DNA from: Hysterangium stoloniferum
Taxonomy: Eukaryota; Basidiomycota; Agaricomycetes; Hysterangiales; Hysterangiaceae
Assembly (NCBI GenBank): GCA_015178975.1
Contig: WHVD01000131.1
Span: forward strand, 62,001-126,000
Reading direction: 5' to 3'
Length of the DNA stretch: 64,000 nt
Both the position numbers and the translations under genes were made by a program. The notes under the pieces are model-generated. The model was not told where the DNA came from and did no database searches. It saw nothing but the letters and a program-made list of their open reading frames with translations. This document shows positions 17,411 through 52,577 of the stretch, piece by piece. Numbering within the stretch: the first letter of the stretch is position 1; each line of letters opens with the position of its first letter.

Positions 17411-18899
17411 TATTACGACCGTGTCACAACCCGACGGTCCCCGAGGATATTGCCACCTATCAATGTTTCAAGTTATCGCTCAAGTCATCGCATTCAAAAC
17501 CATTGGTCGCCCAATGCTGATGTATGCTTTCATGGGCATCAAACCCCATTTACACCCCCCATCAAAAATACTTGTACTATCTGGTTATACTCTGATATGT
17601 CCCTTTTTATTATGATGATCCATTCTACTCTATGTTTCACATATGCCTATATATACTTGTAACCCTTGGACGATTTCCTTTTCTCGTAATTCCGCTCTCG
17701 GTTAATCACAGCCTCTGAACTTATCATAACCTTCCCATTCCTAGTCAAGTTTATTTGTCAAATAATGTTTCTGCTCTTCCCTTAGTTAGTATTTTCTAGA
17801 TGCTGAATACTTGTATATGAACCTGCTGTAGTTGTAGTTACTAGGCAATCAGAATATCGACTCAGAACACCCACATACATCTCTAGAAGTCTTATACTAA
17901 GTATTCTGCTCTCCACCTTCGCATGCACTTGCCCACTCTTGGTCCCTGACCCCTTGGCCCGACACTCGACTTATCCTTTGGTCCCAATCAGTAACTGACA
18001 GTGAGGTACTTGTTAGGACTAGTCTTCACCTATCTGAAATTTAAGGACACCTGATGGTTATTTGCAAGAGCACAGCATATAAGCTGAAGCCAAGTCCTTC
18101 CATTCTGTTAAGACTGTGTCACAACCCTATCAGTCCCGAGGTTACTGCCACTTATCAACGGTTTCAAGTCACCACTTCGGAAACCATCGGCCCCCGAAGC
18201 TGACGTATGCTTTTGCGATGATCAAACTCCATTTACACCCACATCAAAATACTCGTATTGTCTGGTTAAACTTTTGATACGTCCCTTTCATTATGTTGAT
18301 CCATTCTATCCTATGTTTCACATATGTCTATCTATATTTGTAGTCCTTGAACTATTTCCTTTTACCTTGAACTATTTCCTTTTATCGTAATTCCGCTCTC
18401 GGTTATCATCAGCCTCCAAACTAATCATAAACTTCCCATTCCTAGTCAAGCTTATTGTTAATACCATTTTCCACCCTTCTCCCCGTTAGTATTTTCTAGA
18501 CACCTGTTACTTGTATATGAACCCGCTGTAGTTGTAGTTACTAGGCAATCAGAATATCGACTCAGAATACCCTCATACATCTGTAACGGTCTCATACTAA
18601 GAATCCCCCCTTCCGCCTTCGCGTGTGCTCACCTACTCCCAGCCCCGACCCCTTGGCCAACACACGACTTATCCTTCGGTCCCGATCGGTATCCCACCGA
18701 AAGGAACCCTTTAGGATTAGTCTTTGCCCATCCGAAATCTAAGGACACCCTATGGATATTTGTGGGGGCGCAGCACATAAGCTGAAGCCAAGTCCTTCTG
18801 ATCGGTCCCTGTCGGCCACCGACATTAGTCAGTTTTCAGTTCTTAACACATTCAGTCCCCGTTGGCCTACCAAGATTAGTCAGTTTTCAGTTCTTAACA
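17411..18899 (+). repeat. Solo LTR, family A (outer), carrying a second family A LTR
   Basis: Starts TATTACGACCGTGTC (first TG decayed to TA) and ends TTCTTAACA, flanked by a perfect CCAGG duplication (17406-17410 and 18900-18904). The last about 45 bp (18854-18899) are separated from the rest by the inner LTR. Opposite in orientation to the intact element. Confidence 0.88.
18106..18848 (+). repeat. Solo LTR, family A (inner), nested in the outer LTR
   Basis: A 743-bp LTR starting TGTTAAGACTGTGTC and ending TTCTTAACA, flanked by CATTC on both sides (18101-18105 and 18849-18853). It lies inside the U5 end of another family A LTR in the same orientation, so the locus looks like a tandem LTR pair but is a true nested insertion. 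Confidence 0.9.
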
Positions 18900-21731: not shown

Positions 21732-22204
21732 CTAGTACTTGGTATACCCTCCCTTGGCCTTAATTACAGCTTCAACTCTTCTAGGCATATTTTTTACCAA
21801 GTTCAGACACACCTCTTTTGGTATCTTCTCCCATTCCACTTGACAGTGCTTCCAAAGCTCCTCCACTCCACTAGGTAGTGTGTTGTAGTCAGTTAGCCTC
21901 ATTTTCAAGGGTTTAGATTTGGAGACTGTGCTGGTCATTGCATAACAGTATAGCCATGGTCATCAAACCACTTTTGAGCAGTTTTCTGGTATGCTTTGGC
22001 CCATTATCATGTTGGAAGATGGTATCACATGGAGTTTCTTTGTAAAACTCAAGGGATTGCTGAAGTTCATCCTCCAAGATGGAGCAGTAAAGCTGTGGAT
22101 CCATCTTCCCTTCAATCCTAATGGCAAATCCAATGCCTTCCCAATGCATGCAACCACACATCATCACACTACTACCACCAAACCTCAATGATCCCTCCTC
22201 AAAG
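21732..22204 (-). pseudogene. Tc1-type transposase, C-terminal half
   Basis: Minus-strand fragment of a Tc1/mariner DDE transposase. It contains SVMMCGCMHWEGIGFAIRIE, ILEDELQQSLEFYKETP, the second catalytic aspartate in IFQHDNGPKHT, and the C-terminal MPRRVEAVIKAKGGYTKY. The segment with the third acidic residue (normally SPDLNPIEH) is frameshifted. The N-terminal half, with the DNA-binding domains and first aspartate, is absent: at 22204 it is fused directly to plus-strand gag. Confidence 0.8.
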
Positions 22205-22650
22205 CTCAAAATGCGGATGCATGTTATTGGGAATGTCATGTGGAAGTTGCCTGTGAGACCTCCACGGACAAAGTAAACAAGTCCATGGCCAATAAAAACA
22301 ACAACAACAACTTGTCAACCAGCAACCAAAACTCCACGCAATCTGACAAGAAGAACAATAAAAAGTCTTCTAACAACAATGACAACAAGGACAATAACAA
22401 GGGTCAACAGTCCGGCAAGCAAGCCGGAAAACCTGACTTCTCAGGCAAACTCGGACCTGATGGCAAACTGACCCCACAGGAAAGACAACATCACATGGAC
22501 AATAACCTCTGTCTCTTGTGCGGGAAACCTGGTCATCGAGTCCCGGAATGTCCGCTGGCAAAAGCAAACTCTTCAAAGGGTCGAACAGCCAAGACCTCCA
22601 CAGAAACTCCATTGAAGGACAAACCGGCTTCTGACTCGAAAAAAGAGTAA
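22205..22650 (+). pseudogene. Gag C-terminal part of an older plus-strand Gypsy element
   Basis: Opens with LKAQNADACYW, then an N/K-rich linker, and a zinc knuckle CLLCGKPGHRVPEC (CX2CX4HX4C), ending in SKKE and a stop after six As. It equals the last third of the intact Gag with moderate divergence. The N-terminal two thirds are replaced by the Tc1 fragment. The downstream protease of the same element resumes at 30400, beyond the inserted chromovirus. Confidence 0.85.
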
Positions 22651-22681: not shown

Positions 22682-23401
22682 TGTTAAGAACTGGAAACTG
22701 ACTAATGTCGGTGGCCAACAGGGACCGATCGGAAGGACTTGGCTTCAGCTTATGGGCTGCGCCCTCGCAAATATCCGCAGGATGTCCTTAAATTTCGGGC
22801 GGGCGAAGACTAGTCCTAGTGAGTACCTTTCGGCGTGATACCGATCGGAATCGAAGGACAAGTCGAGCGTCGAGCCAAGGGGTCGGGGCCGGGAGTGGGC
22901 GAGCGCACGCGAAGGCGGATGGGGGAAGTCTTAGTATGAGACTGATACAGGTGTATGAGGGTATTCTGAGTCGATATTCTGATTGTCTAGTAACTACAAT
23001 TACAGCGGGTTCATATACAAGTAACAGGCGTCTGGAAAATACTAATGGGGAGAAGGGCGGAACACGGTATTAACAATAAGCTTGACTAGGAACGGGAAGT
23101 TTATGATTAGTTCGGAGGCCGATGATAACCGAGAGCGGAATTACGATAAAAGGAAATGGTTCGAGGACTACAAATATAGATAGACATATGCGAAACATAA
23201 GATTGAACGGATCAACATAATAAAGGGGACGTATCAAAGTTTGACCAGACAATACGAGTTATTTGACGTGGGCGTAAATGGAGTTTGATCTTCGCGAAAC
23301 ATTCGTCAGCTTCGGGGCCGATGGTTTCCGAGGGGACGACTTGAAACGTTGACAAGTGGCGATAACCTCGGGGCCGATAGGGTTGCGACACGGTCGTAAC
23401 A
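22682..23401 (-). repeat. 3' LTR of the intact chromovirus (family A)
   Basis: 720 bp. On the minus strand it begins TGTTACGACCGTGTCGC and ends CAGTTCTTAACA. It carries the conserved stem-loop at 22741-22763 and the TATA box/self-primer region near 22974-23018. Confidence 0.95.
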
Positions 23402-23415
23402 GTATCTCCCCTTTT
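23402..23415 (-). promoter_or_regulatory. Polypurine tract
   Basis: Minus-strand AAAAGGGGAGATAC directly precedes the 3' LTR, the expected plus-strand primer position. It fixes the polarity of the element and marks 22682-23401 as the 3' LTR. Confidence 0.75.
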
Positions 23416-23518
23416 GGCCGAAATCCCAAGGAGGCCGAAAAATCTAGATCCCGTACGTAAAAACTTGTCGGGTACGGCTGGGTGTGTCAAACATCATGTG
23501 ACTCGGCAAAAGTTTGCA

Positions 23519-23525
23519 TATAAAA
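23519..23525 (+). promoter_or_regulatory. TATA box of the antisense gene
   Basis: TATAAAA on the plus strand, 51 nt before the ATG at 23576 and just outside the 3' LTR. A transcript start about 30 nt downstream would leave a leader of roughly 25 nt. Confidence 0.6.
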
Positions 23526-23575
23526 GTTTGAGAGTTCCTGGCGCTTGAAAATCCACTTCCCTTCCTCTAACCACC

Positions 23576-24560
23576 ATGACCATAGGCTCGGGGTCAAAGC
23601 CCTTTCCGGTTAGGTTAACAGTTGCGCCCATGTCGGCGCCGAGTGGTACGGCGAACGCGAAAGAGCGTCGGCGTATACTCGAGCAGAAGAAAAAGGCGCG
23701 TGAAGAGGAGGAGCAGAAAGAGAAGGAGGAGTTGGCGGCCATCGAGGCCGAGGAAAAGAAACAGGCGGCAGAAGAGGCCGCGCGCAAGCACTGGGAAGCA
23801 GTGCTTGCAAAGAACAAGCAGCAGGAGGCCGATCGGGCACGGGAGGAGGCGGCGAAAAAGAAGCGGGAGGGAAAAGTGAGTCGGCTCTGGTGTCTTTTGC
23901 GAACCTTACTGACAATATCTGTTAGCGCAAGGCTGCAACGCCTTCGGAGTCCGATGACGAAGAGGGAGAGGAGGACGAGGAGGATGCACCGGGGCCGTCG
24001 AGCCCCAAGGTGGGTTCGGTTTCCTAAAATAAAAACTTCCTAAATAATTTTTTATTTATTTATAGAAACAAAAGCAGGCCCCCAAGGCGGGGCCCGAAAA
24101 TGACCCCAAGTGCAATCGGTGCACGAAACGGGGTCGAACCTGTCATCCCGGGACCAATGGTCGGGGCCGCACTTGTCAAGAGTGCGCTGATCAGAAGCTT
24201 GGGTGTGTTTTTCCGGGAGCCGATGGCTCATTCCAGGAGCGACAGGCCGATGCTCTAGAAGAGCAAAACCGCCTCATGCGGACCTACTTCTCGGAGACGA
24301 GCCGGTACCGATATGAGATGTTGCGACAACAAGGGCTTGTAACTGAGCAATTGCGACTCTTGGGCGTCGGGCTGGAGAAACAGACCAGTGTTATCGAGTC
24401 TCTCGGTGGTCAACTTGAGCAGTATTTGGAAGTCTCGAGTTGCGGTGGGCATGAAATTGGGGTTTCGGAGAAGGTCGGTGATGTGGTATCGGTGGCTGTC
24501 GGTGCGGAGGTGGGTTCGGAGGTCGGAGAGGAGGGAGAAGTTGTAGAGGGAGAAAATTAG
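23576..24560 (+). CDS. Antisense accessory gene: Zn2Cys6-like coiled-coil protein inside the chromovirus
   Basis: Three exons (23576-23875, 23926-24009, 24066-24560) encode 292 residues. The 50- and 56-nt introns are GTGAGT...TTAG, with a TACTGAC branch-like sequence, and GTGGGT...ATAG; all junctions keep phase 0. The ATG sits in an ACCACCATG context after a TATA box. Residues about 30-100 form a highly charged helix (AKERRRILEQKKKAREEEEQ), followed by an acidic linker (SDDEEGEEDEEDA). Residues 144-175 have cysteine spacing CX2CX6CX10CX2CX6C, the spacing of fungal Zn2Cys6 DNA-binding clusters. Residues about 190-245 form a second probable coiled coil, followed by a V/G/E-rich tail. The gene lies between pol and the 3' LTR, convergent with pol (96 bp between stop codons). 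DNA binding or regulation of the element is inference; the domain spacing and gene structure are seen. An internal ATG at 23630 is a possible alternative start. Confidence 0.85.
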
Positions 24561-24656
24561 ATAGTGAAATATATCGGTTTTTCTTTTTAAACAAACAAAT
24601 CATAGCGTGAAAACATAAGGCATAGTCGGAAAAAGGTCGGGTACCGCGTGATAGTC
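24561..24656. other. Convergent intergenic gap in the chromovirus
   Basis: Ninety-six bases separate the stop codons of the antisense gene and pol. No AATAAA is present on the plus strand. Confidence 0.6.
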
Positions 24657-27600
24657 TTATAAGGAATTGAGAGGACCGGGTTTGTTCGGATAAGCTTGGT
24701 GAAACCCTAAAACGATTTCCGAGGCATTACTGAGCTCTGTAGCTAGGATCCATGAAGTTTCTTCATCTGTACCTTCATAGCCAGCCCATTTGACCAAATA
24801 AAGTAATTTGCATGAGCGTCGGCGATTGTCGATTTTTGAGTCTAGGATTTCTGATATCTCGAATTCGGGTTCCCCATCAATAATCACGGGTGGAGGTGGT
24901 GGCTGTATGCGATCCGGTATATTGTTAGGAACACAAGGTTCTAACATAGATACATGAAATACCGGGTGCACTGCACGCATGTTGTCGGGGAGCCGAAGCG
25001 TCCATGAAAGTGTGCCGGCTTGTGCTATAACTTCGAAAGGACCTAAATATTTTTCAGAGAGCTTCTTAGAAGGTCTAGTAGTTCGGAAAAACTCGGCTTT
25101 AACGAATACTCGGTCTCCGATCTTGAAATCAGGAGGTGGAAGTCGGTTTTTATCCGCAGACCGTTGGTATCGTTCTTGAGCCATTGCGATAGTTTTACGA
25201 AGTTCTTGATGTAGCTCGTCGAGGTTTGTAACAAAGTCTTGAGCACGGGCGGATGCGAGATCGCGTTCCGGGTGGATTGCGATGTTGGGGTTGTAGCCTT
25301 TATTTGCGAAGAAAGGCGAAATGCCAGTAGTGGCATTCGGTGCGTTGTTGTATGCGAATTCGGCCAGCGGTAGTAGTGATTTCCAATTGTCTTGTTGATA
25401 GTTGCAATAGACACGGATGTATTGCTCCAAGGTTTGATTCATGCGTTCGGTTTGTCCATCGCCTTCCGGGTGATAGCCCGAAGTGAAGTGTAACTTCATG
25501 TCTAGTGCTTTTCCGAGTGACCTAAAGAAGTGAGAGACAAACTCGGAGCCGCGATCGGATGTGACATGCGACGGAACGCCATGCTTGGAAAATACGTGGG
25601 TAACGAATAATTCAGCTAACTGTACAGATGTTATCGTGTCATATGTTGGAATGAAAATACTTTGCTTTGAGAGCCGATCCACAACAACTAGGATTGCTGT
25701 GTGACCTTCGGATGCCGGTAGGTGCTCGATAAAATCCATAGAAATCGAGTTCCAGGGTTTTTCCGGTATCGGTAATTGTTTGAGTAGGCCATATGGTTTG
25801 TGTCGCTGTGATTTAGAGCGTAAACACGTAGTACAGGATTTACAATAGTGCTTAACAAAATCTCGGATGCCGGGCCATGTATATTCTCTTCTAATGAGTG
25901 AGAGGGTCTTATTGAGGCCGAAATGTCCTGAGATTGGGTGGTCGTGCTTATGTTGTAGGATTTGCAGCCGAAGGGTGTCGGAATCCGGTACATAAATGCG
26001 ATTGTCAAGTCGAATGAAACCTTGTGAGTCTAATGACCATCGGGGCTGATCGGGGTCGGACGGGTTATCGAGGTGTGCTTTGGTGACTGGGTCTAATGGA
26101 ATTGCCGATAGCATGTCTTGATGTAACTTTTCGGTATCCATAAGGATAACACTTCGCAAGACTGGATGAATGAGGTAAGTGGCTCGGATAGATGCGGACA
26201 GTTGTTCCGATGAAAACATAGGTTTGAAATTATGCGGATTAACTGTGGCGTAGTCGCTACTCCCCTCTTTAGGATAGACGTCCCATCGTCTAGTCATAGC
26301 GTCGGGTTTTCCACCAAGGCGGCCGGGACGGAAGCGGATTACCATGTTGAAAGCGGAGAGGTATTCGGACCATCGAGCTTGTCGATGGGTGAGAAGTTTT
26401 GTGGTTGAAAAGTAAACTAAATTTTTGTGGTCTGTAATAACATCTACCGGGTGGGCCGAGCCCTCCAAATAATGTCGCCATGTCTTGAAAGCTTCAAATA
26501 TTGCGAGTAATTCCTTATCGTGAACGTCGTAGTTGAGTTCGGGTGCCGAAAATGTGCGAGACAGAAAAGCTACTGGGTGTACTTCACCATCGGTGTCCAG
26601 AATGGACAATATCGCGGCAAGCGCATAGTCCGAAGCATCAGTTTCCACGATGAGTTGAACGTCGGGTTTCCAGTGCGACAAGATAGGGGCGGATGTAAAC
26701 GCACTTTTCAATTCCTGGAATGCCGATCGGCATTCTTCGGAGAAATTCCACGGGGTGTCTTTGCGAGTAAGACGAGTGAGCGGAACGGTAATTTTTGAGT
26801 AATTGTGAATGAAACGGCGATAAAAATTGGCGAAGCCTAAAAAAGATTGAATATCTTTAACCTTTCGGGGTTCCGGCCAATCTTGAATGACTTGAATTTT
26901 AGCGTCGTCCATGCGGAGACCATCAGGTCCCATCATGAAGCCTAAGTATTCAACCGTGTCGACATCAAAAGAACATTTTTTACCATTCGCAAAAAGACCA
27001 TGTTTTCGGAGTCTTCGGAGGACTTCACGGACGTGTTCATCATGAAGTGTAGGGTCTTCGGAGAAGATGAGGATGTCGTCTAGGTACACAATGACAAAGA
27101 CGTCAAGGAGGTCGGAAAAGACATCGTTGATAAAACATTGAAAGACCGACGGAGCGTTGGTGAGGCCGAAAGGCATTACTAACCATTCAAAGGAGCCATA
27201 GCGAGTGCGAAAAGCCGTTTTCCATTCGTCGCCTTCGGCGATCCGAACCAAATGATAGGCGTGTTTGAGATCTATCTTTGTATAAATTCGGGCCTTCCGA
27301 GGGGCGTCGAGTAAATCGGAGATTAATGGTAATGGGTACTTGTCTTTTCGAGTAATCGCGTTTAGTCCTCGAAAGTCAACGCAAAGTCGAAGGGAACCGT
27401 CTTTTTTCCGAACGAATAGGACAGGGGCTCCATAGGGAGACTTTGAGGGTCGGATAAAACCTATAGCCAAATGTTCATCCAAGAAATCTCGGATAGCCGA
27501 TAATTCGGACTGCGAGAGAGGATAAACTGGGCCTAGGGGCGGATGTGAACCATCTTCAATATCAATTTTCAAATCGTAAGGCCTGTGAGGGGCGAGTCGA

Positions 27601-28469
27601 TCGGCTTTTTGTTTACTGAAGACATCTGCAAATTCATGGTATTTTTTAGGAACACCTTCTAAATCTGCGATCGGTTCGGTCACCGGGGATGCAAAGCGAC
27701 CGGTGACTTCGTCAACTTTAAGATTGACTGTAAATGCTCGGGAGCCGTCCAAATTGATGGCTCTCATAAAAGCTGCGGCGTTTATTAGAGAGACAGGCGG
27801 CGGAGAGCTCGGATTTGCCACGGGGGCCGGAGGTGCTGTAGAGGCCATATTTGCCGAAACAGGCGGAAACGGACCAGTCGTATCGGGTGCCGACGGGGTT
27901 CGGAAATGGATACTGCTCAATACCCAATCAATCAACGGATTATAGCGGGTGAGCCAGTTATGTCCTAGAACCACGGAGCAGCTCGAGTCCAACTGTGTTA
28001 CAAAAAACGTAACTGTCTGAAAGGTTCCACACGGGAACCGAAGTCGGAGTTCGCAGGCTTGCGAGATTACGGAGTTTGAGGTACCATCAAAAAGTCGGAG
28101 CGGAATCGGATCTATTGCATAGGTTTTCAACTGATTTTTTCTGGAAAAACTTGTATCTATAAAACAATGGGTTGAACCTGAATCTATGAGAGCTCGAAAA
28201 GTGAAACTCCCGAGAGGTTCCGAAGTAAGATTTATGAACAAAGAATTAGGATCATACAATGCGGATGCGTTAAGATGACAATTTTCCGGTGTGCGAGGAG
28301 ATTCAACGCAACTCTCCAACCGCACGGAATCCAGAGAGTTGCTTAATCTTTTTTCGACTCGGCAGCCGGCTTGGCCGGTTGTGAGGTCGTGGCCGTGTTG
28401 GCCGATCGGGCTTTTGTGGCTTTTGGGCATGCAGCGACTCGGTGTCCGGGATCTGCACACAACAAACAA
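24657..28469 (-). CDS. Chromovirus Pol polyprotein: protease, RT, RNase H, integrase, chromodomain
   Basis: A 1270-codon open frame, in the -1 frame relative to gag and overlapping it by 127 nt. Its first 40 or so codons are probably not made independently, because translation would enter by frameshifting near residue 40. Domains: aspartic protease with DSG at 96-98; RT (about 330-550) with YLDD at 462-465; RNase H with D611, E653 and D680; integrase zinc finger H844/H849/C879/C882; integrase core D912, D972 and E1008 (spacing 35 between the last two); the GPY/F module at YLGPF, 1141-1145; and a C-terminal chromodomain (about 1203-1260, EFEISEILDSK to LYLVKWAGYEGTDEETSW). The chromodomain places it among chromoviruses and in known members directs integration to particular chromatin. 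No stop or frameshift interrupts it. Confidence 0.95.
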   Translation of the reverse strand: MFVVCRSRTPSRCMPKSHKSPIGQHGHDLTTGQAGCRVEKRLSNSLDSVRLESCVESPRTPENCHLNASALYDPNSLFINLTSEPLGSFTFRALIDSGSTHCFIDTSFSRKNQLKTYAIDPIPLRLFDGTSNSVISQACELRLRFPCGTFQTVTFFVTQLDSSCSVVLGHNWLTRYNPLIDWVLSSIHFRTPSAPDTTGPFPPVSANMASTAPPAPVANPSSPPPVSLINAAAFMRAINLDGSRAFTVNLKVDEVTGRFASPVTEPIADLEGVPKKYHEFADVFSKQKADRLAPHRPYDLKIDIEDGSHPPLGPVYPLSQSELSAIRDFLDEHLAIGFIRPSKSPYGAPVLFVRKKDGSLRLCVDFRGLNAITRKDKYPLPLISDLLDAPRKARIYTKIDLKHAYHLVRIAEGDEWKTAFRTRYGSFEWLVMPFGLTNAPSVFQCFINDVFSDLLDVFVIVYLDDILIFSEDPTLHDEHVREVLRRLRKHGLFANGKKCSFDVDTVEYLGFMMGPDGLRMDDAKIQVIQDWPEPRKVKDIQSFLGFANFYRRFIHNYSKITVPLTRLTRKDTPWNFSEECRSAFQELKSAFTSAPILSHWKPDVQLIVETDASDYALAAILSILDTDGEVHPVAFLSRTFSAPELNYDVHDKELLAIFEAFKTWRHYLEGSAHPVDVITDHKNLVYFSTTKLLTHRQARWSEYLSAFNMVIRFRPGRLGGKPDAMTRRWDVYPKEGSSDYATVNPHNFKPMFSSEQLSASIRATYLIHPVLRSVILMDTEKLHQDMLSAIPLDPVTKAHLDNPSDPDQPRWSLDSQGFIRLDNRIYVPDSDTLRLQILQHKHDHPISGHFGLNKTLSLIRREYTWPGIRDFVKHYCKSCTTCLRSKSQRHKPYGLLKQLPIPEKPWNSISMDFIEHLPASEGHTAILVVVDRLSKQSIFIPTYDTITSVQLAELFVTHVFSKHGVPSHVTSDRGSEFVSHFFRSLGKALDMKLHFTSGYHPEGDGQTERMNQTLEQYIRVYCNYQQDNWKSLLPLAEFAYNNAPNATTGISPFFANKGYNPNIAIHPERDLASARAQDFVTNLDELHQELRKTIAMAQERYQRSADKNRLPPPDFKIGDRVFVKAEFFRTTRPSKKLSEKYLGPFEVIAQAGTLSWTLRLPDNMRAVHPVFHVSMLEPCVPNNIPDRIQPPPPPVIIDGEPEFEISEILDSKIDNRRRSCKLLYLVKWAGYEGTDEETSWILATELSNASEIVLGFHQAYPNKPGPLNSL

Positions 28470-29641
28470 AGGTTGTTGTCCATTCGGCGTTGCTTTTCCT
28501 GTGGTAGGAGCTTGCCATCGGAGCCGAGTTTGCCAGTTAGGTCGGGTTTGTCTTTGTCTTGAGACTTATTCGACTGTTTGCCCTTGCCTTTTTTGTCGTT
28601 AGACCCTTTGTTTTCGGACTTCTTATCGGAAGTCGAGTTGCCAGTTATATTGGTGTTTTGGTTACCAGACTTGTTGGCATTTTTGTTGTCCGATAATTTT
28701 TTGTCCGACGGGTTTTCGCGACTGATTTCCGAACATCGTTCCCAGTATCGAGCGTCTGCGTTTTGGGCTTTCAGGCGCATGAGAGGGAGGGTTTTCGGCT
28801 TGCCGGTCTCTCCTTTGGAGACTTCGTCTTTGAGGCGAGACGGAAGGCCGGAGTAAAACTGGTAATGGAGGGCCGAATCGCCCCAGTCGCAACGCGCGGC
28901 GAGGTTGTTGAACTGGACGATATAATTGGTGATGCGCTGAGTGTCTTTCATTTTGAGATTAGAAAGCGCGGTTTCGGCATCGCCGGTTTGGTCGTAGGGG
29001 CCGAAGTTGGTTTCGAGTTCCTCGACAAAGGCATCCCAATCGTGGAGCCAATCGGGGTCTTCAGAGGTGAGGCCAGAAAATGCGGGTTCAAACCAGGCTG
29101 CTGCGGAATCCTTAAGGTATGAGAGTGCGAAGTTTACCTTTCGGTCATCCGTTGCGAATGCAGCCGGGCGGTCCCGAAAGTTGAATCGACATTGCATAAG
29201 GAATGTCGGCAATTTCTTCGGGTTTGAGCCAGTAAATGGCTCGGGTTTGTTGACTCGGGTTTGCCCAGGTTCCTTTTCCTTGATATTGCTTTTAAGGAAT
29301 TCATTAAGGGATCCTAGTGTACCTGAAAACAATTCCCATGTTTCTTCAGGGTCGAGAGCCGGTTTCTTCTTTGCAGACTTCTTGGAGCCACTAGCCTGAG
29401 GTTGGTCGCCATCCTCGGGTTCGTGTTCCGAAACTGGTTGATTGTTAATCTCCTCAGTTGCTTCGGGATCGGTTGCTTCAGTTACTTCTTCAGCATCGCC
29501 GGTAATCTCCACAAAGCGAGATTCTTCGGAGGTTTCTGGTAGCGGAGTTTTCTGAGTAGCTCGGGCTGTATACAGAAAAGGAGACTTGAGAGTGGAAGAT
29601 TCTGCTTCGCCGCTAGGCTTGGCATTTTTCCTCGGAGGCAT
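28343..29641 (-). CDS. Chromovirus Gag with zinc knuckle
   Basis: A 432-residue protein that should assemble into the virus-like particle and bind the RNA. Residues 1-100 are acidic and low complexity. About 130-300 matches the retrotransposon Gag core (LKDSAAAWFEPAFSG, NNLAARCDWGDSALHYQFYSGLP). About 305-370 is an N/K/S-rich linker, and C392-X2-C395-X4-H400-X4-C405 is a zinc knuckle. The start ATG is 38 nt from the 5' LTR, with the primer-binding site between. The frame ends SKKD-stop next to a run of six As. N-terminal fragments of the same family recur at 8.2 and 32.4 kb. Confidence 0.93.
   Translation of the reverse strand: MPPRKNAKPSGEAESSTLKSPFLYTARATQKTPLPETSEESRFVEITGDAEEVTEATDPEATEEINNQPVSEHEPEDGDQPQASGSKKSAKKKPALDPEETWELFSGTLGSLNEFLKSNIKEKEPGQTRVNKPEPFTGSNPKKLPTFLMQCRFNFRDRPAAFATDDRKVNFALSYLKDSAAAWFEPAFSGLTSEDPDWLHDWDAFVEELETNFGPYDQTGDAETALSNLKMKDTQRITNYIVQFNNLAARCDWGDSALHYQFYSGLPSRLKDEVSKGETGKPKTLPLMRLKAQNADARYWERCSEISRENPSDKKLSDNKNANKSGNQNTNITGNSTSDKKSENKGSNDKKGKGKQSNKSQDKDKPDLTGKLGSDGKLLPQEKQRRMDNNLCLLCADPGHRVAACPKATKARSANTATTSQPAKPAAESKKD
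28346..28354 (-). promoter_or_regulatory. Candidate -1 ribosomal frameshift site at the gag/pol overlap
   Basis: On the minus strand TCG AAA AAA GAT TAA ends gag. The pol frame is reached by slipping back one base in the A run. The run is not a canonical X XXY YYZ heptamer in the gag frame, but an A6-A7 run followed by GA(T/G)TAAGCAAC is conserved in the older copies at 22.6 kb and 4.2 kb, which supports a function. Confidence 0.55.
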
Positions 29642-29666
29642 GTTTAGACGGAAAATGCGAGTGTGA

Positions 29667-29677
29667 AATCAGAATAT
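29667..29677 (-). promoter_or_regulatory. Predicted self-priming primer-binding site of the intact chromovirus
   Basis: Two nt inside the 5' LTR boundary. On the minus strand ATATTCTGATT is the reverse complement of AATCAGAATAT inside the LTR (29972-29982). No tRNA primer sequence is present. Confidence 0.75.
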
Positions 29678-29679
29678 AC

Positions 29680-30399
29680 TGTTAAGAACTGGAAACTGAC
29701 TAATGTCGGTGGCCGACAGGGACCGATCGGAAGGACTTGGCTTCAGCTTATGGGCTGCGCCCTCGCAAATATCCGCAGGATGTCCTTAAATTTCGGGCGG
29801 GCGAAGACTAGTCCTAGTGAGTACCTTTCGGCGTGATACCGATCGGAATCGAAGGACAAGTCGAGCGTCGAGCCAAGGGGTCGGGGCCGGGAGTGGGCGA
29901 GCGCACGCGAAGGCGGATGGGGGAAGTCTTAGTATGAGACTGATACAGGTGTATGAGGGTATTCTGAGTCGATATTCTGATTGTCTAGTAACTACAATTA
30001 CAGCGGGTTCATATACAAGTAACAGGCGTCTGGAAAATACTAATGGGGAGAAGGGCGGAACACGGTATTAACAATAAGCTTGACTAGGAACGGGAAGTTT
30101 ATGATTAGTTCGGAGGCCGATGATAACCGAGAGCGGAATTACGATAAAAGGAAATGGTTCGAGGACTACAAATATAGATAGACATATGCGAAACATAAGA
30201 TTGAACGGATCAACATAATAAAGGGGACGTATCAAAGTTTGACCAGACAATACGAGTTATTTGACGTGGGCGTAAATGGAGTTTGATCTTCGCGAAACAT
30301 TCGTCAGCTTCGGGGCCGATGGTTTCCGAGGGGACGACTTGAAACGTTGACAAGTGGCGATAACCTCGGGGCCGATAGGGTTGCGACACGGTCGTAACA
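29680..30399 (-). repeat. 5' LTR of the intact chromovirus (family A)
   Basis: 720 bp, one visible difference from the 3' LTR. Reading on the minus strand it contains the promoter (TATATGAA at about 30009-30016), the proposed transcript start and self-primer at 29972-29984, and the stem-loop at 29739-29761 in the transcribed part. Confidence 0.95.
29972..30016 (-). promoter_or_regulatory. LTR promoter: TATA box and self-primer / transcript start
   Basis: TATATGAA at about 30009-30016 is followed, about 34 nt downstream on the minus strand, by AATCAGAATAT (29972-29982). That puts the sequence complementary to the primer-binding site at or very near the expected 5' end of the RNA. Confidence 0.65.
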
Positions 30400-30912
30400 G
30401 GGGGTTGCATTGCCTCTCCACGCATTCAAGAGTTTACCCATCTCAACGCATCTGCTCTTTCACATTGTGATTCATTTTTCGTTAAACTTTATGTCTAATA
30501 TGATTCTGAAATTCATTTTTTTCAGCTCTTATAGATTCCAGCTCGACTCATTGTTTTTTAGATAAAAGATTCACACAAAAATTTTTTTTTTCAACTTATC
30601 TGATAAATCCCGTCGCTCTCTGCCTCTTTGATGGCACAAGTAATTCGGTTGTTACCCAAGCTTGTGATTTATCCATCTGTTTCCCATGTGGAACATCTCA
30701 ATTGGTCACTTTCTATATGACCCAGTTAGACTCAAGTTGCTTGGTGGTCCTTGGACACAACTGGCTTACCCGCTACAATCCGTTGATTGACTGGGTAGCT
30801 AACAGTATAACATTCTGGACCCCCGTAGCAGCTGAGGAAACTGTGCCCGACCTAGCCTCCACGGCACCCATCGCCATCCTGGCACCTGCAGTCTCGAGGA
30901 CTCCTGTGATCC
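30400..30912 (+). pseudogene. Protease region of the older plus-strand Gypsy element
   Basis: Resumes the element broken by the chromovirus. It contains HLNASAL, LIDSSSTHCF (protease DSG changed to DSS), LFDGTSNSVVTQACDL, TQLDSSCLVVLGHNW, LTRYNPLIDWV and a P/A-rich linker. Upstream frames are broken. It stops at 30912, where an LTR of family E begins. RT and downstream domains are not found on the other side. Confidence 0.85.
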
Positions 30913-32168
30913 TGTGAGGTATCAACCTCATCTCATAATATTCTCTTAATTTTCTGTGGATTATTTAATATTTTTTTGAATTTATTGTATTTTGATTATA
31001 TTTTTATTGTGAAATATAAGGCCTTATTCCTTTTAACTTCGCATATATGAGCTCATATAATGCTATTATATCTTATTTATTTTATTATAATTTTTAACTA
31101 ATTATTTATATTTTATTTACTTAGTTATTGCTTTTTGGCACCTTGCTGCAGCCTTGTTTGCGCATTTTTGGAGTCACGTGACATATTAGATAAGCCTCCG
31201 GTGTCGGGATATCACACAAGTCACGGATGTGACTACTCGAGTCATTAATTGATTCCGCCGACTCATCGTTTGCTTCCGTCCTGGGACCACGGCCTTGAAC
31301 CTTCATGTTCAAGCAAGAGGTTAGAACCCTTGTCTCAGAGAGGGGAATCACATGGTAAATAAAGGGTAAAAAATAAGTAGAATATGAGGTCATTATGACC
31401 TAAATAATGACCTCATAAAATAAATAAATGGTTAAATATTTAGTTATCAAAATGTATATAAGGAGGGCCAAGTTTCCAATAAAATCATCATATCACACAC
31501 AACTTTTACTGCACAGCTCAGAAGCTTATCTAATCACCCTAAGGACAATAATAGCCTTAGTCTGATACACTAACTGCAAGCACCTACACTTGCAGAATCT
31601 TGAATCTGTGTCAGCAACTCTTGAACTTAGCTAATCATCTAAGTTCCCTCAGCCTCACAGCTACCCTTAGCCTTATTAATTACATAATAAACCTAATAAG
31701 TATCTAAGTATCCTTACTGAAATTCCCTGCCAATACTAGATTATTCAAGGCCCAGCCCTAAGTTTATTGAATTAATCAAGTACAAGCACTCAAATAATCC
31801 AACACATATTATTGTCTCTATTAATAAATTATTTAACACCTTGTTAAATAACTATTAATAGTTATAAATAAGCATACAAGAATTAGAAGCTTTATATCAA
31901 GTCTCCGCTAAGTTACTGTGCATATACTCAGCTTCTAGCCCCTATTCTCAAGGAATAGTTCTTTTATTTGCTAAAAGAGTCATATATTGTTCTATTGAAC
32001 CTTTCAATAATCAAAATAAGCATTGATTTGAGTTGTTTAAGCTTAATAGTGCAGCTCATTAATCTATCAGTATTTAAATTACTGGACCTTTGCTTGTTTT
32101 ATTGTTGAAGCTCTGTGACACTATAGCATATATTGAGCTATCTAAGAGAAACCCCTAAATACATTACA
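30913..32168 (+). repeat. Solo LTR, family E, copy 1
   Basis: Starts TGTGAGGTATC and ends CTAAATACATTACA (1256 bp). A TATATAAGG box lies near 31453, and a 12-bp inverted repeat (31385-31415) lies upstream of it. Flanks are GATCC and GATCG, so only four of five bases match, and they belong to different elements in opposite orientation, which suggests recombination and not simple insertion. Confidence 0.85.
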
Positions 32169-50786: not shown

Positions 50787-52577
50787 ATGCACACTTTGTC
50801 TCGTGCCAGCCAGAATCATATCCTCTCATTGCTTGATGTTAGCCATTCAGCTAGCCACATTGCAGCTTTTACTGGTCATAGCATTTTCACAGTCTCTAAG
50901 CTTCACTCTAAGCATTGTTCTCATCTCTCTAAGTCCATTGGTGGTCATCCCTCAAAGCTTTTCCCTACCAACATTCATTATGCACAGCACCTCATCAGCT
51001 CTGGGAAGGCTGACACTGCTGTTGATGTGGCCAAAGCTCTGAGGAGTGTCACCAACCAGTTCATCTGCACCCAAACTGTGTACAATAGTCTTAATATGGT
51101 TGGAAATGCCTCAATAACCCTTCTAATGTTTGGTACTTCAGATTTACATCCCTGATAACTCAGAGAATAAAAATGCAAAAATATCAAAGATATTTGTGAA
51201 TATTGTTAGGATACACACACAGGCCGGGTCTCCGGAGAAACCCGCGGCATATCGGGTAGGACTTGGCTTCAGCTTATAGGCTGCACCCTCATTAGATCGT
51301 GGTGTCCAATTTCAAACGGACGGACGGGAAGCCTGGGGAGTCCGGGCGGGGTTCGTGGATCATAGGTCATAGGTCGTAGGTCGTGAGTCGTGAGTCGAGA
51401 TAGTTGAGAGAGATAGATGTGCCGGAGCCCGTGGGCTCCAACTAGTGCGAGCGGTCTGATAAGAGTAAGGTTTTAGGGCGGAAAATATATTAGATTACTG
51501 GGGGGAATCTAAGCTAATTTTCTGACTGGATTGCTGCCAGTTTATATAGACCATGGAGTGAATAACATACCAAATCCAGTAATGACGAAATGAAACTAAC
51601 AAAACATAAAACGGGAATAGTAAACACCAAGTTTGGTGTTAGGAATGGGACGGAATGGAGCAGAGTCTGAATCATGACAAAGCATAACCCATAACGGGAA
51701 GCGGAGCAGGAGCGGAGTCCTAAATCATGACAGGTCATTTGACTAAAACGGGAACGGGGCTCGATTAGAGCGGTGACGGGATTCTGAGCGGGATCCGGTG
51801 ACTGATGTGTGGGACGAAGACGGACATAGACAGAGACGGAGTCCGGGGGAAGTCCGGTAACTGATATGTGTCGTAATGAGGTCGAACATAACAACTCTTG
51901 ATGTAGTGGAGTCCGGGCAGGAAATCCTATAAACAGACATTTGGTGTATGTAGGGTGTGATGGCGTACATGTTAGTGCCCGGAGTCCAGCGGGATTGTCC
52001 GGTCATAACAAATATGCTCTATCATATCTATATTATGTAAATACAGTGCCATTACATAAGCTCCAAATATGGAAATACTACAAATATTTATATATAGGAG
52101 ACTTATTGGAAGGGATTTTTTGTGAGGTTTGGAGAAGGATTTGTGATGTTATGGGCTACATGCTGTGGGAAGGACCTGGGTATTCTTTCAAGATAGATGA
52201 GAGAATGGATGGGGACCTTTATCTTAAGATTATAGAGAAGGACCTTCAAGCCAGCTTCAGCTATTATAGAAAATATGTGGGTGATGTCATCTTTCAGCAA
52301 GATCATGACCTTGAACATACCTGCAAGAAGGCCCAGACTTGTTTTCAAGATAATGATTTCAATGTTCTCCCATGGCCAGCACAGTCTCCAGACCTCAACC
52401 CCATTGAACACTTGTGGGACTATGAAAAGAGGAGGCTAAGGGATACTGGTGTTGTGGGAGAGGGTGGAGGAGGAGTGGACCAAGATTGATGCAGAGGTGT
52501 GTCAGAATTTGATTGAAAGTATGCCTAGGAGGGTTGTAGCTGTGTTGAAGGCAAAGGGTGGCTATACTAAGTACTAA
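50787..52577 (+). pseudogene. Tc1 transposase, internally deleted and interrupted
   Basis: The N-terminal part 50787-51127 contains the paired helix-turn-helix region (MHTLSRASQNHILSLL, HIAAFTGHSIFTVSKLHSKH, KSIGGHPSKL, ISSGKADTAVDVAKAL). The middle, with the first catalytic aspartate, is replaced by a copy of the terminal repeat plus a solo LTR. The C-terminal part from about 52126 carries MGYMLWEGPGYSFKIDERMD, the second Asp in VIFQQDHDLEHT and the third acidic residue in SPDLNPIEHLWD, then a frame change before AKGGYTKY. It cannot encode an active enzyme. Confidence 0.88.
51204..52010 (-). repeat. Solo LTR, family B, nested in the Tc1 element
   Basis: An 807-bp LTR starting TGTTAGGATACACAC and ending CGGTCATAACA, with a perfect AATAT duplication (51199-51203 and 52011-52015). 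It lies inside the internal terminal-repeat copy, so it is the youngest of the three nested layers here. Confidence 0.95.

What the first reader, a model, noticed from the sequence alone, without database searches (positions are those of the whole stretch)
23519..24560. A spliced Zn2Cys6-type gene encoded antisense inside an intact chromovirus
Between the pol stop (24657) and the 3' LTR (ends 23401) the element has about 1.25 kb that a standard chromovirus does not need. On the opposite strand this stretch holds a complete gene: TATAAAA at 23519, ACCACCATG start at 23576, two short phase-0 GT-AG introns (one with a TACTGAC branch sequence), and a 292-residue product with cysteine spacing CX2CX6CX10CX2CX6C flanked by two coiled-coil segments. 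The LTRs differ at a single base and gag and pol are open, so this is part of a recently mobile unit and not random decay. Established: Zn2Cys6 clusters are fungal DNA-binding modules; antisense genes in LTR elements are known from some plant elements and from a few retroviruses. Inference: the protein could regulate the element's own LTR, silence or license gag-pol through convergent transcription, or be a captured host regulator. Such elements may also seed the many short orphan Zn2Cys6 proteins annotated in mushrooms. I know of no description of this arrangement in fungal chromoviruses but cannot search.
Basis: partly seen in the sequence, partly recalled or inferred. Interest (0 to 1): 0.92.

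Follow-up and report, generated by a model that had tools for sequence, protein, structure and literature searches.

The report
Antisense zinc-cluster gene in fungal retrotransposons
A jumping element in a fungal genome carries, on its opposite strand, a small spliced gene for a probable DNA-binding nuclear protein, and at least three element families have kept this gene under natural selection, so it is a real accessory gene of the element and probably helps regulate it.

Summary
Window 22682-30399 is a chromodomain Gypsy element (720-bp LTRs, one difference; open gag and pol). Between pol and the 3' LTR, antisense, lies a three-exon gene (292 aa; CX2CX6CX10CX2CX6C). It is not a one-off: in 40 copies scored in this genome both GT-AG introns are kept in 40 and the full frame in 26. 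Two further families (F2, F3), whose antisense proteins are 31-38% alike to ours over the alignable part, carry it at the same place with the same two phase-0 intron positions, basic blocks, six cysteines and a TATA box 57-58 bp before the ATG. Codon models give omega 0.23-0.42 for diverged sets and 0.63 for close copies; omega = 1 is rejected. Two more distant families show no such cluster. Antisense accessory genes are known in Gypsy elements (Grande gene23, Retand, fungal Boty brtn), so the arrangement is not new; a spliced, zinc-cluster version kept across families appeared in none of the papers listed by my searches. Zn2Cys6 membership is plausible, not proven: Pfam scores are below cut-off. 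Expression, DNA binding and occurrence in other species could not be tested.

The parts
22682..23401 (-). 3' LTR of the element (sense = minus strand)
   Evidence: 720-bp direct repeat, one difference from the other LTR; GGGGG on both sides of the element
23402..23419 (-). polypurine-tract-like stretch (GGCCAAAAGGGGAGATAC in sense)
   Evidence: read directly; function inferred from position
23416..23435 (+). 20-bp block GGCCGAAATCCCAAGGAGGC, nearly unchanged in F1, F2 and F3 upstream of the antisense TATA; candidate upstream element of the antisense promoter
   Evidence: alignment of one copy of each of the three families; function inferred
23519..23525 (+). TATAAAA, putative core promoter of the antisense gene
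   Evidence: 57 bp from the ATG; F2 58 bp, F3 57 bp
23576..23875 (+). antisense gene exon 1 (100 aa, highly charged)
23876..23925 (+). intron 1, phase 0, GT-AG, TACTGAC branch-like site
   Evidence: GT-AG in 40 of 40 copies; same position in F2 and F3
23926..24009 (+). exon 2 (28 aa; acidic stretch between RKA and SPK)
24010..24065 (+). intron 2, phase 0, GT-AG, length 47-63 among 40 copies
24066..24560 (+). exon 3 (zinc-cluster-like domain, long helix, acidic tail, stop)
   Evidence: codon tests
24111..24206 (+). six-cysteine cluster CX2CX6CX10CX2CX6C
   Evidence: sub-threshold Zn_clus likeness
24657..28469 (-). pol (PR, RT, RNase H, integrase, SH3_Tf2-1, chromodomain), 1270 aa as listed
28343..29641 (-). 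gag, 432 aa
29660..29679 (-). primer-binding-site region; 11 nt complementary to a site inside the LTR (self-priming candidate)
29680..30399 (-). 5' LTR

Best explanation
The element carries a true accessory gene on the strand opposite to gag-pol. Shown from sequence: it sits between pol and the 3' LTR with a TATA box just inside the LTR; it has two introns oriented for its own strand, kept at the same places in three families; and it is held by purifying selection in all three. Inferred: because sense genomic RNA does not splice these introns, they survive retrotransposition; from the integrated copy, RNA polymerase II makes a spliced mRNA whose product enters the nucleus through the basic blocks at the exon junctions (GK|RKA ... 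SPK|K.K), pairs through its helix, and binds DNA through the cysteine cluster, most likely the element's own LTR or the chromatin it inserts into, thereby tuning gag-pol transcription. In layout this is like HTLV HBZ or maize Grande gene23, with an unrelated protein.
For: Forty close copies scored in the same genome (40 of 300 candidates); GT-AG kept at both introns in 40 of 40, full 292-aa frame in 26 of 40, all three exons at reference length in 32 of 40, while intron 2 varies 47-63 nt. Antisense to pol in 20 of 20 copies fetched with longer flanks (20 of the 40, window copy included). F2: exon-3 match 31% over 96 columns, E 7e-6, opposite to pol. F3: cluster at the same place. Same two phase-0 intron positions in all three. 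Of 42 pol copies with an open frame of at least 800 aa that I took by eye from the 150 listed rows, 35 have an F2-type exon 3 downstream on the opposite strand and none on the same strand. Omega: F1 40 close copies 0.63; F1 nine rows with diverged copies 0.36; F3 0.42, exon 3 alone 0.39; F2 exon 3 0.23; 2dlnL against omega = 1 is 13.3, 96.2, 149.9, 118.9 and 154.0 (which refined). Same 17 copies: pol 0.33, antisense 0.45. F3 exon 3 has no stop in 110 of the 150 rows listed (counted by eye) at 73-100% identity; neutral simulation gives 8-43% without stops at 75-90% identity. Cluster profiles of F1-F3 resemble each other beyond the cysteines: 0 of 30 cysteine-preserving shuffles reach the score in each of three pairs.
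Against: No expression, splicing or binding data. Zn_clus scores are below the Pfam cut-off in all three families, and none of the genome's 42 Zn_clus matches lies at an element place listed or 43 (compared by eye). Beyond the cysteines, likeness to host Zn_clus is clear for F1 (0 of 30 shuffles) but weak for F2 (1 of 30) and absent for F3 (8 of 30). Foldseek found nothing useful. CGG/CCG are not enriched in the F1 LTR (28 seen, 27.5 expected). The close-copy signal is modest, and among variants shared by two or more close copies the frame test is not significant (255 of 1000). The mirrored reverse frame of F3 exon 3 also gives a low omega (0.44), although it holds 51 stops in 21 rows. In 13 of 40 close copies the frame is broken. 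One copy (L059) has the pol end open but the zinc cluster deleted (pol frame 1304 aa). Two distant families show no such cluster (L056, L061).
Confidence: 0.55

Rival explanations
1. Silencing rival: the antisense transcript itself matters. It pairs with the 3' part of the genomic RNA, feeds small-RNA silencing or dampens gag-pol by convergent transcription, and the protein is incidental.
For: The two stop codons face each other with 96 bp between them (24560 and 24657), so the exons of any antisense mRNA are complementary to the genomic RNA. PMC7264820 raises this role for plant elements (parts 1 and 2 of 3 read).
Against: A role of the RNA alone does not predict omega 0.23-0.42, mostly in-frame exon indels in F3, kept splice sites and kept cysteines. 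It may act besides the protein.
Confidence: 0.15
2. The protein serves the replication cycle rather than transcription: through its basic blocks, helix and zinc cluster it helps the pre-integration complex enter the nucleus or choose sites, together with the chromodomain.
For: NLS-like basic blocks at both exon junctions in all three families; the review PMC7264820 discusses nuclear import of the pre-integration complex for antisense ORFs.
Against: A separate promoter on the opposite strand suits an early nuclear regulator better than a particle component; no interaction data exist.
Confidence: 0.2
3. A captured host transcription factor gene carried as a passenger without function for the element.
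For: F1's cluster resembles this genome's Zn_clus domains beyond the cysteines (0 of 30 shuffles); antisense introns would survive as in a captured gene.
Against: Shared by three diverged families under purifying selection. No closer host gene was seen, but the lists stop at 150 rows and would hide one.
Confidence: 0.07
4. Chance open frame or annotation artefact.
For: The zinc-cluster call rests on spacing; Pfam is below cut-off.
Against: Same gene structure in three families; omega = 1 rejected.
Confidence: 0.02

Closest known systems
Boty-like elements of Botrytis with antisense gene brtn (Zhao et al. 2011, Virology; paper not seen, cited in PMC7264820, PMC8365987, PMC4227169)
   Same: Fungal Gypsy element; PMC4227169 lists a CHROMO domain in gag-pol; PMC7264820 puts its additional ORF antisense between pol and 3' LTR
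   Different: The passages I saw mention no zinc cluster, introns or cross-family selection test; sequences were not compared here
Maize Grande gene23 (Gomez-Orte et al. 2013; seen only through the review PMC7264820)
   Same: Antisense gene between pol and 3' LTR, own promoter, nuclear protein
   Different: Plant element; the review says no clear similarity to other proteins is known for such products
Plant Retand antisense ORFs with TRP28 domain (PMC11963269; passages read, parts of the abstract among them)
   Different: TRP28 domain, non-chromovirus lineage; words beginning with intron or zinc do not occur in the main text
HBZ of HTLV-1 (recalled; the HTLV antisense promoter is mentioned in PMC7264820)
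   Same: Spliced antisense gene near the 3' LTR for a nuclear regulator with a coiled coil
   Different: HBZ is a bZIP protein of a retrovirus; here a cysteine cluster and no bZIP match
Zn2Cys6 fungal transcription factors (Pfam PF00172)
   Same: Six-cysteine spacing in the usual range (recalled); F1 resembles host Zn_clus beyond cysteines; a helix follows the cluster
   Different: Below the Pfam cut-off; encoded by a retrotransposon

Membership tests
Chromovirus (chromodomain Ty3/Gypsy LTR retrotransposon) | LTRs, gag, pol with protease-RT-RNaseH-integrase order and a C-terminal chromodomain | tested here: met
   RVP_2, RVT_1, RT_RNaseH, Integrase_H2C2, rve, SH3_Tf2-1, and Chromo at 25.5 bits against cut-off 25.1
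Antisense accessory gene (aORF-3R) of LTR retrotransposons | Gene between pol and 3' LTR on the opposite strand | tested here: met
   opposite to pol in 20 of 20 copies examined
Antisense accessory gene (aORF-3R) of LTR retrotransposons | Present in most copies, conserved like the element's other proteins | tested here: met
   omega 0.45 against pol 0.33, 17 rows; 35 of 42 open pol copies; F1 copies were found through the gene itself, so one search does not test presence
Antisense accessory gene (aORF-3R) of LTR retrotransposons | Transcribed from its own promoter | not testable with these tools
   TATA at a kept distance in three families only
Zn2Cys6 binuclear cluster (PF00172) | CX2CX6CX5-12CX2CX6-8C spacing (recalled) | tested here: met
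   F1 and F3 X10, F2 X9, in the 81 of 94 scanned loci where an open cluster was retrieved; the search pattern itself fixed the CX2CX6C halves and allowed 8-13 between
Zn2Cys6 binuclear cluster (PF00172) | Pfam Zn_clus score over the curated cut-off (21 bits) | tested here: not met
   8.9 (F1), 10.1 (F2) and 8.8 (F3) bits
Zn2Cys6 binuclear cluster (PF00172) | Profile likeness to genuine Zn_clus domains beyond cysteines | tested here: inconclusive
   F1 0, F2 1, F3 8 of 30 shuffles reach the real score
Zn2Cys6 binuclear cluster (PF00172) | Binds two zinc ions and CGG/CCG-type DNA (recalled) | not testable with these tools
   no binding data; triplet counts mixed
HBZ-type retroviral antisense regulator | bZIP domain (recalled) | tested here: not met
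   no bZIP family among Pfam hits of the F1 protein up to E 1

The most novel reading that the evidence does not exclude
A lineage of fungal chromoviruses encodes its own antisense zinc-cluster transcription factor. DNA-binding protein and LTR diverge together while the end of pol stays about 84% alike, so each family is wired to its own regulator, an HBZ-like strategy reached independently and the first self-encoded zinc-cluster regulator of a retrotransposon.
Probability: 0.33. Interest if true: 0.85.

Novelty: new variant of a known kind. Interest (0 to 1): 0.63.

Why it matters
Antisense genes of LTR elements are known but unexplained. Here is one with a recognisable domain type, two introns that orient it, three diverged families with many copies in one genome, and selection measured on it. 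That makes the open question, what antisense accessory genes do, directly testable with one recombinant protein per family and the matching LTRs. It also warns annotators: genes of this kind in fungal genomes may be counted as host zinc-cluster proteins.

Tried and rejected
Chance frame: rejected. One-off insertion: rejected. Sense-strand coding in the same stretch: for F3 exon 3 the three reverse frames hold 97, 51 and 186 stops in 21 rows. Relatives in viral contigs: none confirmed by tblastn with pol or exon 3. PDB sequence search and Foldseek: nothing informative. CGG/CCG enrichment as a sign of self-binding: mixed; the F2 and F3 stretches tested are the inner 700 and 589 bases up to an LTR edge set by likeness to F1, their outer LTR ends were not mapped. 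Deletion copy L059 as a spreading derivative: only one match spans the whole query (40 of 927 candidates scored). First frame test on 40 close copies: 2 of 1000 for singletons, 255 of 1000 for shared variants, so diverged sets were used. The iqtree omega was missed in its report file and then read from its log. A first likelihood test with few kappa values was repeated with more; the values moved by less than 1. Host taxon: four other window ORFs gave one Pfam hit, DDE_3; that the host is a fungus rests on the element type, Zn_clus genes and intron style; the species is unknown.

Rows dropped: L009 equals the window copy and was left out (40 rows = window plus 39); L095 from the F3 whole-gene test; L064, L070, L073, L074 (4 of 12 diverged loci) from the diverged F1 test; L058 from the F2 test for length. 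F2 rows include one locus twice (L051 = L078), one frameshifted copy (L054) and two codons past the stop; three F2 fetches missed exon 1. The 20 F3 copies were chosen from rows without stops in exon 3, which favours open frames. Stop codons were masked for the codon models, which also favours low omega slightly.

Full report
What is there. The window holds a 7.7-kb chromodomain Gypsy element at 22682-30399, read on the minus strand: LTRs of 720 bp with one difference, GGGGG on both sides, gag 28343-29641 and pol 24657-28469 open, with the expected Pfam domains including a chromodomain just over its cut-off.

It is part of the element. A DNA search of the same 111-Mb genome scored 40 copies (of 300 candidates), identity 94-100%, three of them partial. 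The antisense gene lies opposite to pol in 20 of the 20 copies fetched with longer flanks (the window copy L009 also touches an older element on the other strand), and the eight in which two LTRs were compared differ by 0-14 bases per LTR pair. Among the 40 copies, both introns keep GT-AG in 40, the full 292-aa frame stands in 26, one more (L045) has an in-frame deletion (286 aa), and 13 are broken; 32 have all three exons at reference length, whereas intron 2 ranges from 47 to 63 nt. The exon-3 protein has at least 150 matches in the genome, down to 68% identity (150 of 478 candidates scored).

It is older than this family. Using old remnants in the window as bait, I found a second family, F2 (L050), whose pol end is 85% identical to ours over 116 aa but whose antisense protein is only 31% identical over 96 columns, E 7e-6. 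Its gene has exons of 327 and 57 nt and a third exon, introns of 49 and 49 nt, and a TATA box 58 bp before the ATG. A third family, F3 (L062), has a pol end 84.6% identical over 149 aa and an antisense match of 38% over 53 columns, introns of 51 and 47 nt and TATA at 57 bp. In all three the introns cut the protein at the same points: EGK|RKA ... SPK|KQK (F1), AGK|RKA ... SPQK|KARK (F2), EGK|RKA ... SPK|KPK (F3). The fetched copy L062 has one in-frame stop in exon 1, but other F3 copies such as L086, L099 and L102 show none. F2 and F3 antisense exons each fill the 150-row list (1376 and 976 candidates). Two more distant families, with pol ends 37.6-38.9% identical, show no such cluster in the roughly 2 kb read beyond pol (L056, L061).

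Selection. Codon models (iqtree2, GY+F3X4; stops masked) give omega 0.633 for 40 close F1 rows, 0.357 for nine F1 rows (window plus eight diverged), 0.421 for F3 (20 rows), 0.386 for F3 exon 3 (21 rows), and 0.228 for F2 exon 3 (11 rows, one locus twice). Twice the log-likelihood difference to omega = 1, on the fixed best tree, is 13.3, 96.2, 149.9, 118.9 and 154.0. Four of the five other frames of F3 exon 3 give 1.39-1.94; the mirrored frame gives 0.44 but contains 51 stops in 21 rows. In the same 17 close rows pol (last 800 codons) gives 0.334 and the antisense gene 0.447. F3 exon 3 has no stop in 110 of 150 listed rows (counted by eye); a neutral simulation expects 8-43% at 75-90% protein identity, with the caveat that ranking by score favours intact rows. 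Exon indels in F3 are mostly multiples of three. Against this, the first test on variants shared among close copies was not significant.

Association with pol. Of the 42 copies with a pol frame of at least 800 aa that I took by eye from the 150 listed rows, 35 have an F2-type exon 3 downstream on the opposite strand, none on the same strand. Of the seven others, two run into a contig end; four were read: L057 and L060 hold recognisable but disrupted parts, L058 holds a diverged open exon 3, and L059 has the middle of the gene deleted, zinc cluster included; the seventh is the distant family L056.

What the protein may be. Exon 3 is predicted (AlphaFold2, single sequence, best of five models, the other four much poorer) as short helices in the cysteine region at low confidence, then one 72-residue helix, confident over about 60 residues at pLDDT 83-91. 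Zn_clus is the only Pfam family to appear in all three families, always far below cut-off. The genome's own Zn_clus matches (42) served for comparison: 19 of the 20 short stretches fetched held the motif, and profile alignment finds F1 more alike to these than all 30 cysteine-preserving shuffles, F2 more than 29, F3 more than 22; between F1, F2 and F3 no shuffle of 30 reaches the real score in any pair. So the three clusters are homologous, and kinship to Zn2Cys6 is likely for F1 but not settled. Basic blocks flanking the acidic exon 2 look like a bipartite nuclear signal (inference). A 20-bp block next to the polypurine tract, upstream of the antisense TATA, is nearly unchanged in the three families while the DNA around it has diverged.

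How it probably works. Introns in the antisense strand are not removed from the genomic RNA, so they persist through reverse transcription (established principle); their presence at the same places in three families argues for a gene read from its own strand over a long time. The likeliest role is a nuclear DNA-binding regulator made from the integrated copy, acting on the LTR or local chromatin; this role is inferred. Fast divergence of the antisense protein and of F1 against F2 LTR sequence (only a 39-nt block of the F1 LTR matched the fetched F2 stretch L050), against a steady pol end, would fit regulators tuned to their own LTR. CGG/CCG triplets, recalled as Zn2Cys6 half-sites, are enriched at the inner LTR edge of F2 (47 seen, 34.4 expected, 0 of 500 shuffles) and F3 (20 seen, 10.5 expected, 2 of 500) but not in the F1 LTR (28 seen, 27.5 expected).

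Known ground. [quoted passage not shown] PMC11963269 (passages) finds antisense TRP28 ORFs in plant Retand elements and proposes regulation. PMC8365987 and PMC4227169 (passages) mention brtn; PMC4227169 lists a CHROMO domain in the Boty-like gag-pol. The fungal survey PMC3248453 (passages) has no occurrence of 'antisense' in its main text. Searches listed no paper that by title, start of abstract or passages seen describes a zinc-cluster antisense gene in a fungal LTR element; several lists were cut (20 of 58, 20 of 28, 20 of 80, 10 of 983, 12 of 37), and most subscription papers are not held. The arrangement is therefore known; the domain, splicing and cross-family conservation look new. I file it as a new variant of a known kind.

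Noticed in passing
window 22198-22650 and 30385-30914: The element is nested in an older related Gypsy element on the plus strand: gag end on the left flank, start of pol on the right; the piece 30519-30914 is 80-88% alike to at least 149 other genomic places.
   Followed up: partly
window 29660-29679 and LTR: The site after the 5' LTR is complementary over 11 nt to a site inside the LTR, some 30 bases after a TATA-like stretch: probable self-priming of reverse transcription of the Tf1 kind (kind recalled).
   Followed up: partly
window 22730-22768 (LTR): A 35-39-nt LTR block is nearly unchanged in F2 copies and other remnants although the rest of the LTR has diverged; possibly an essential cis element of the sense transcript.
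   Followed up: no
L059 (G000:C2:324916-327300): F2 copy with pol open to its end but the middle of the antisense gene deleted, leaving one open frame of exon-1 sequence plus the tail, without the zinc cluster; only one match spans the junction.
   Followed up: partly
L064-L075: Older F1 copies carry many R to W, Q or C changes and TGA stops, as expected from CpG decay (base changes not tallied).
   Followed up: no
window 17413-18848: Two older related LTRs in inverse orientation (86.6% and 77% to the element's LTR) lie left of the element.
   Followed up: no
window 51902-52486: Open frame with a DDE_3 transposase domain.
   Followed up: no
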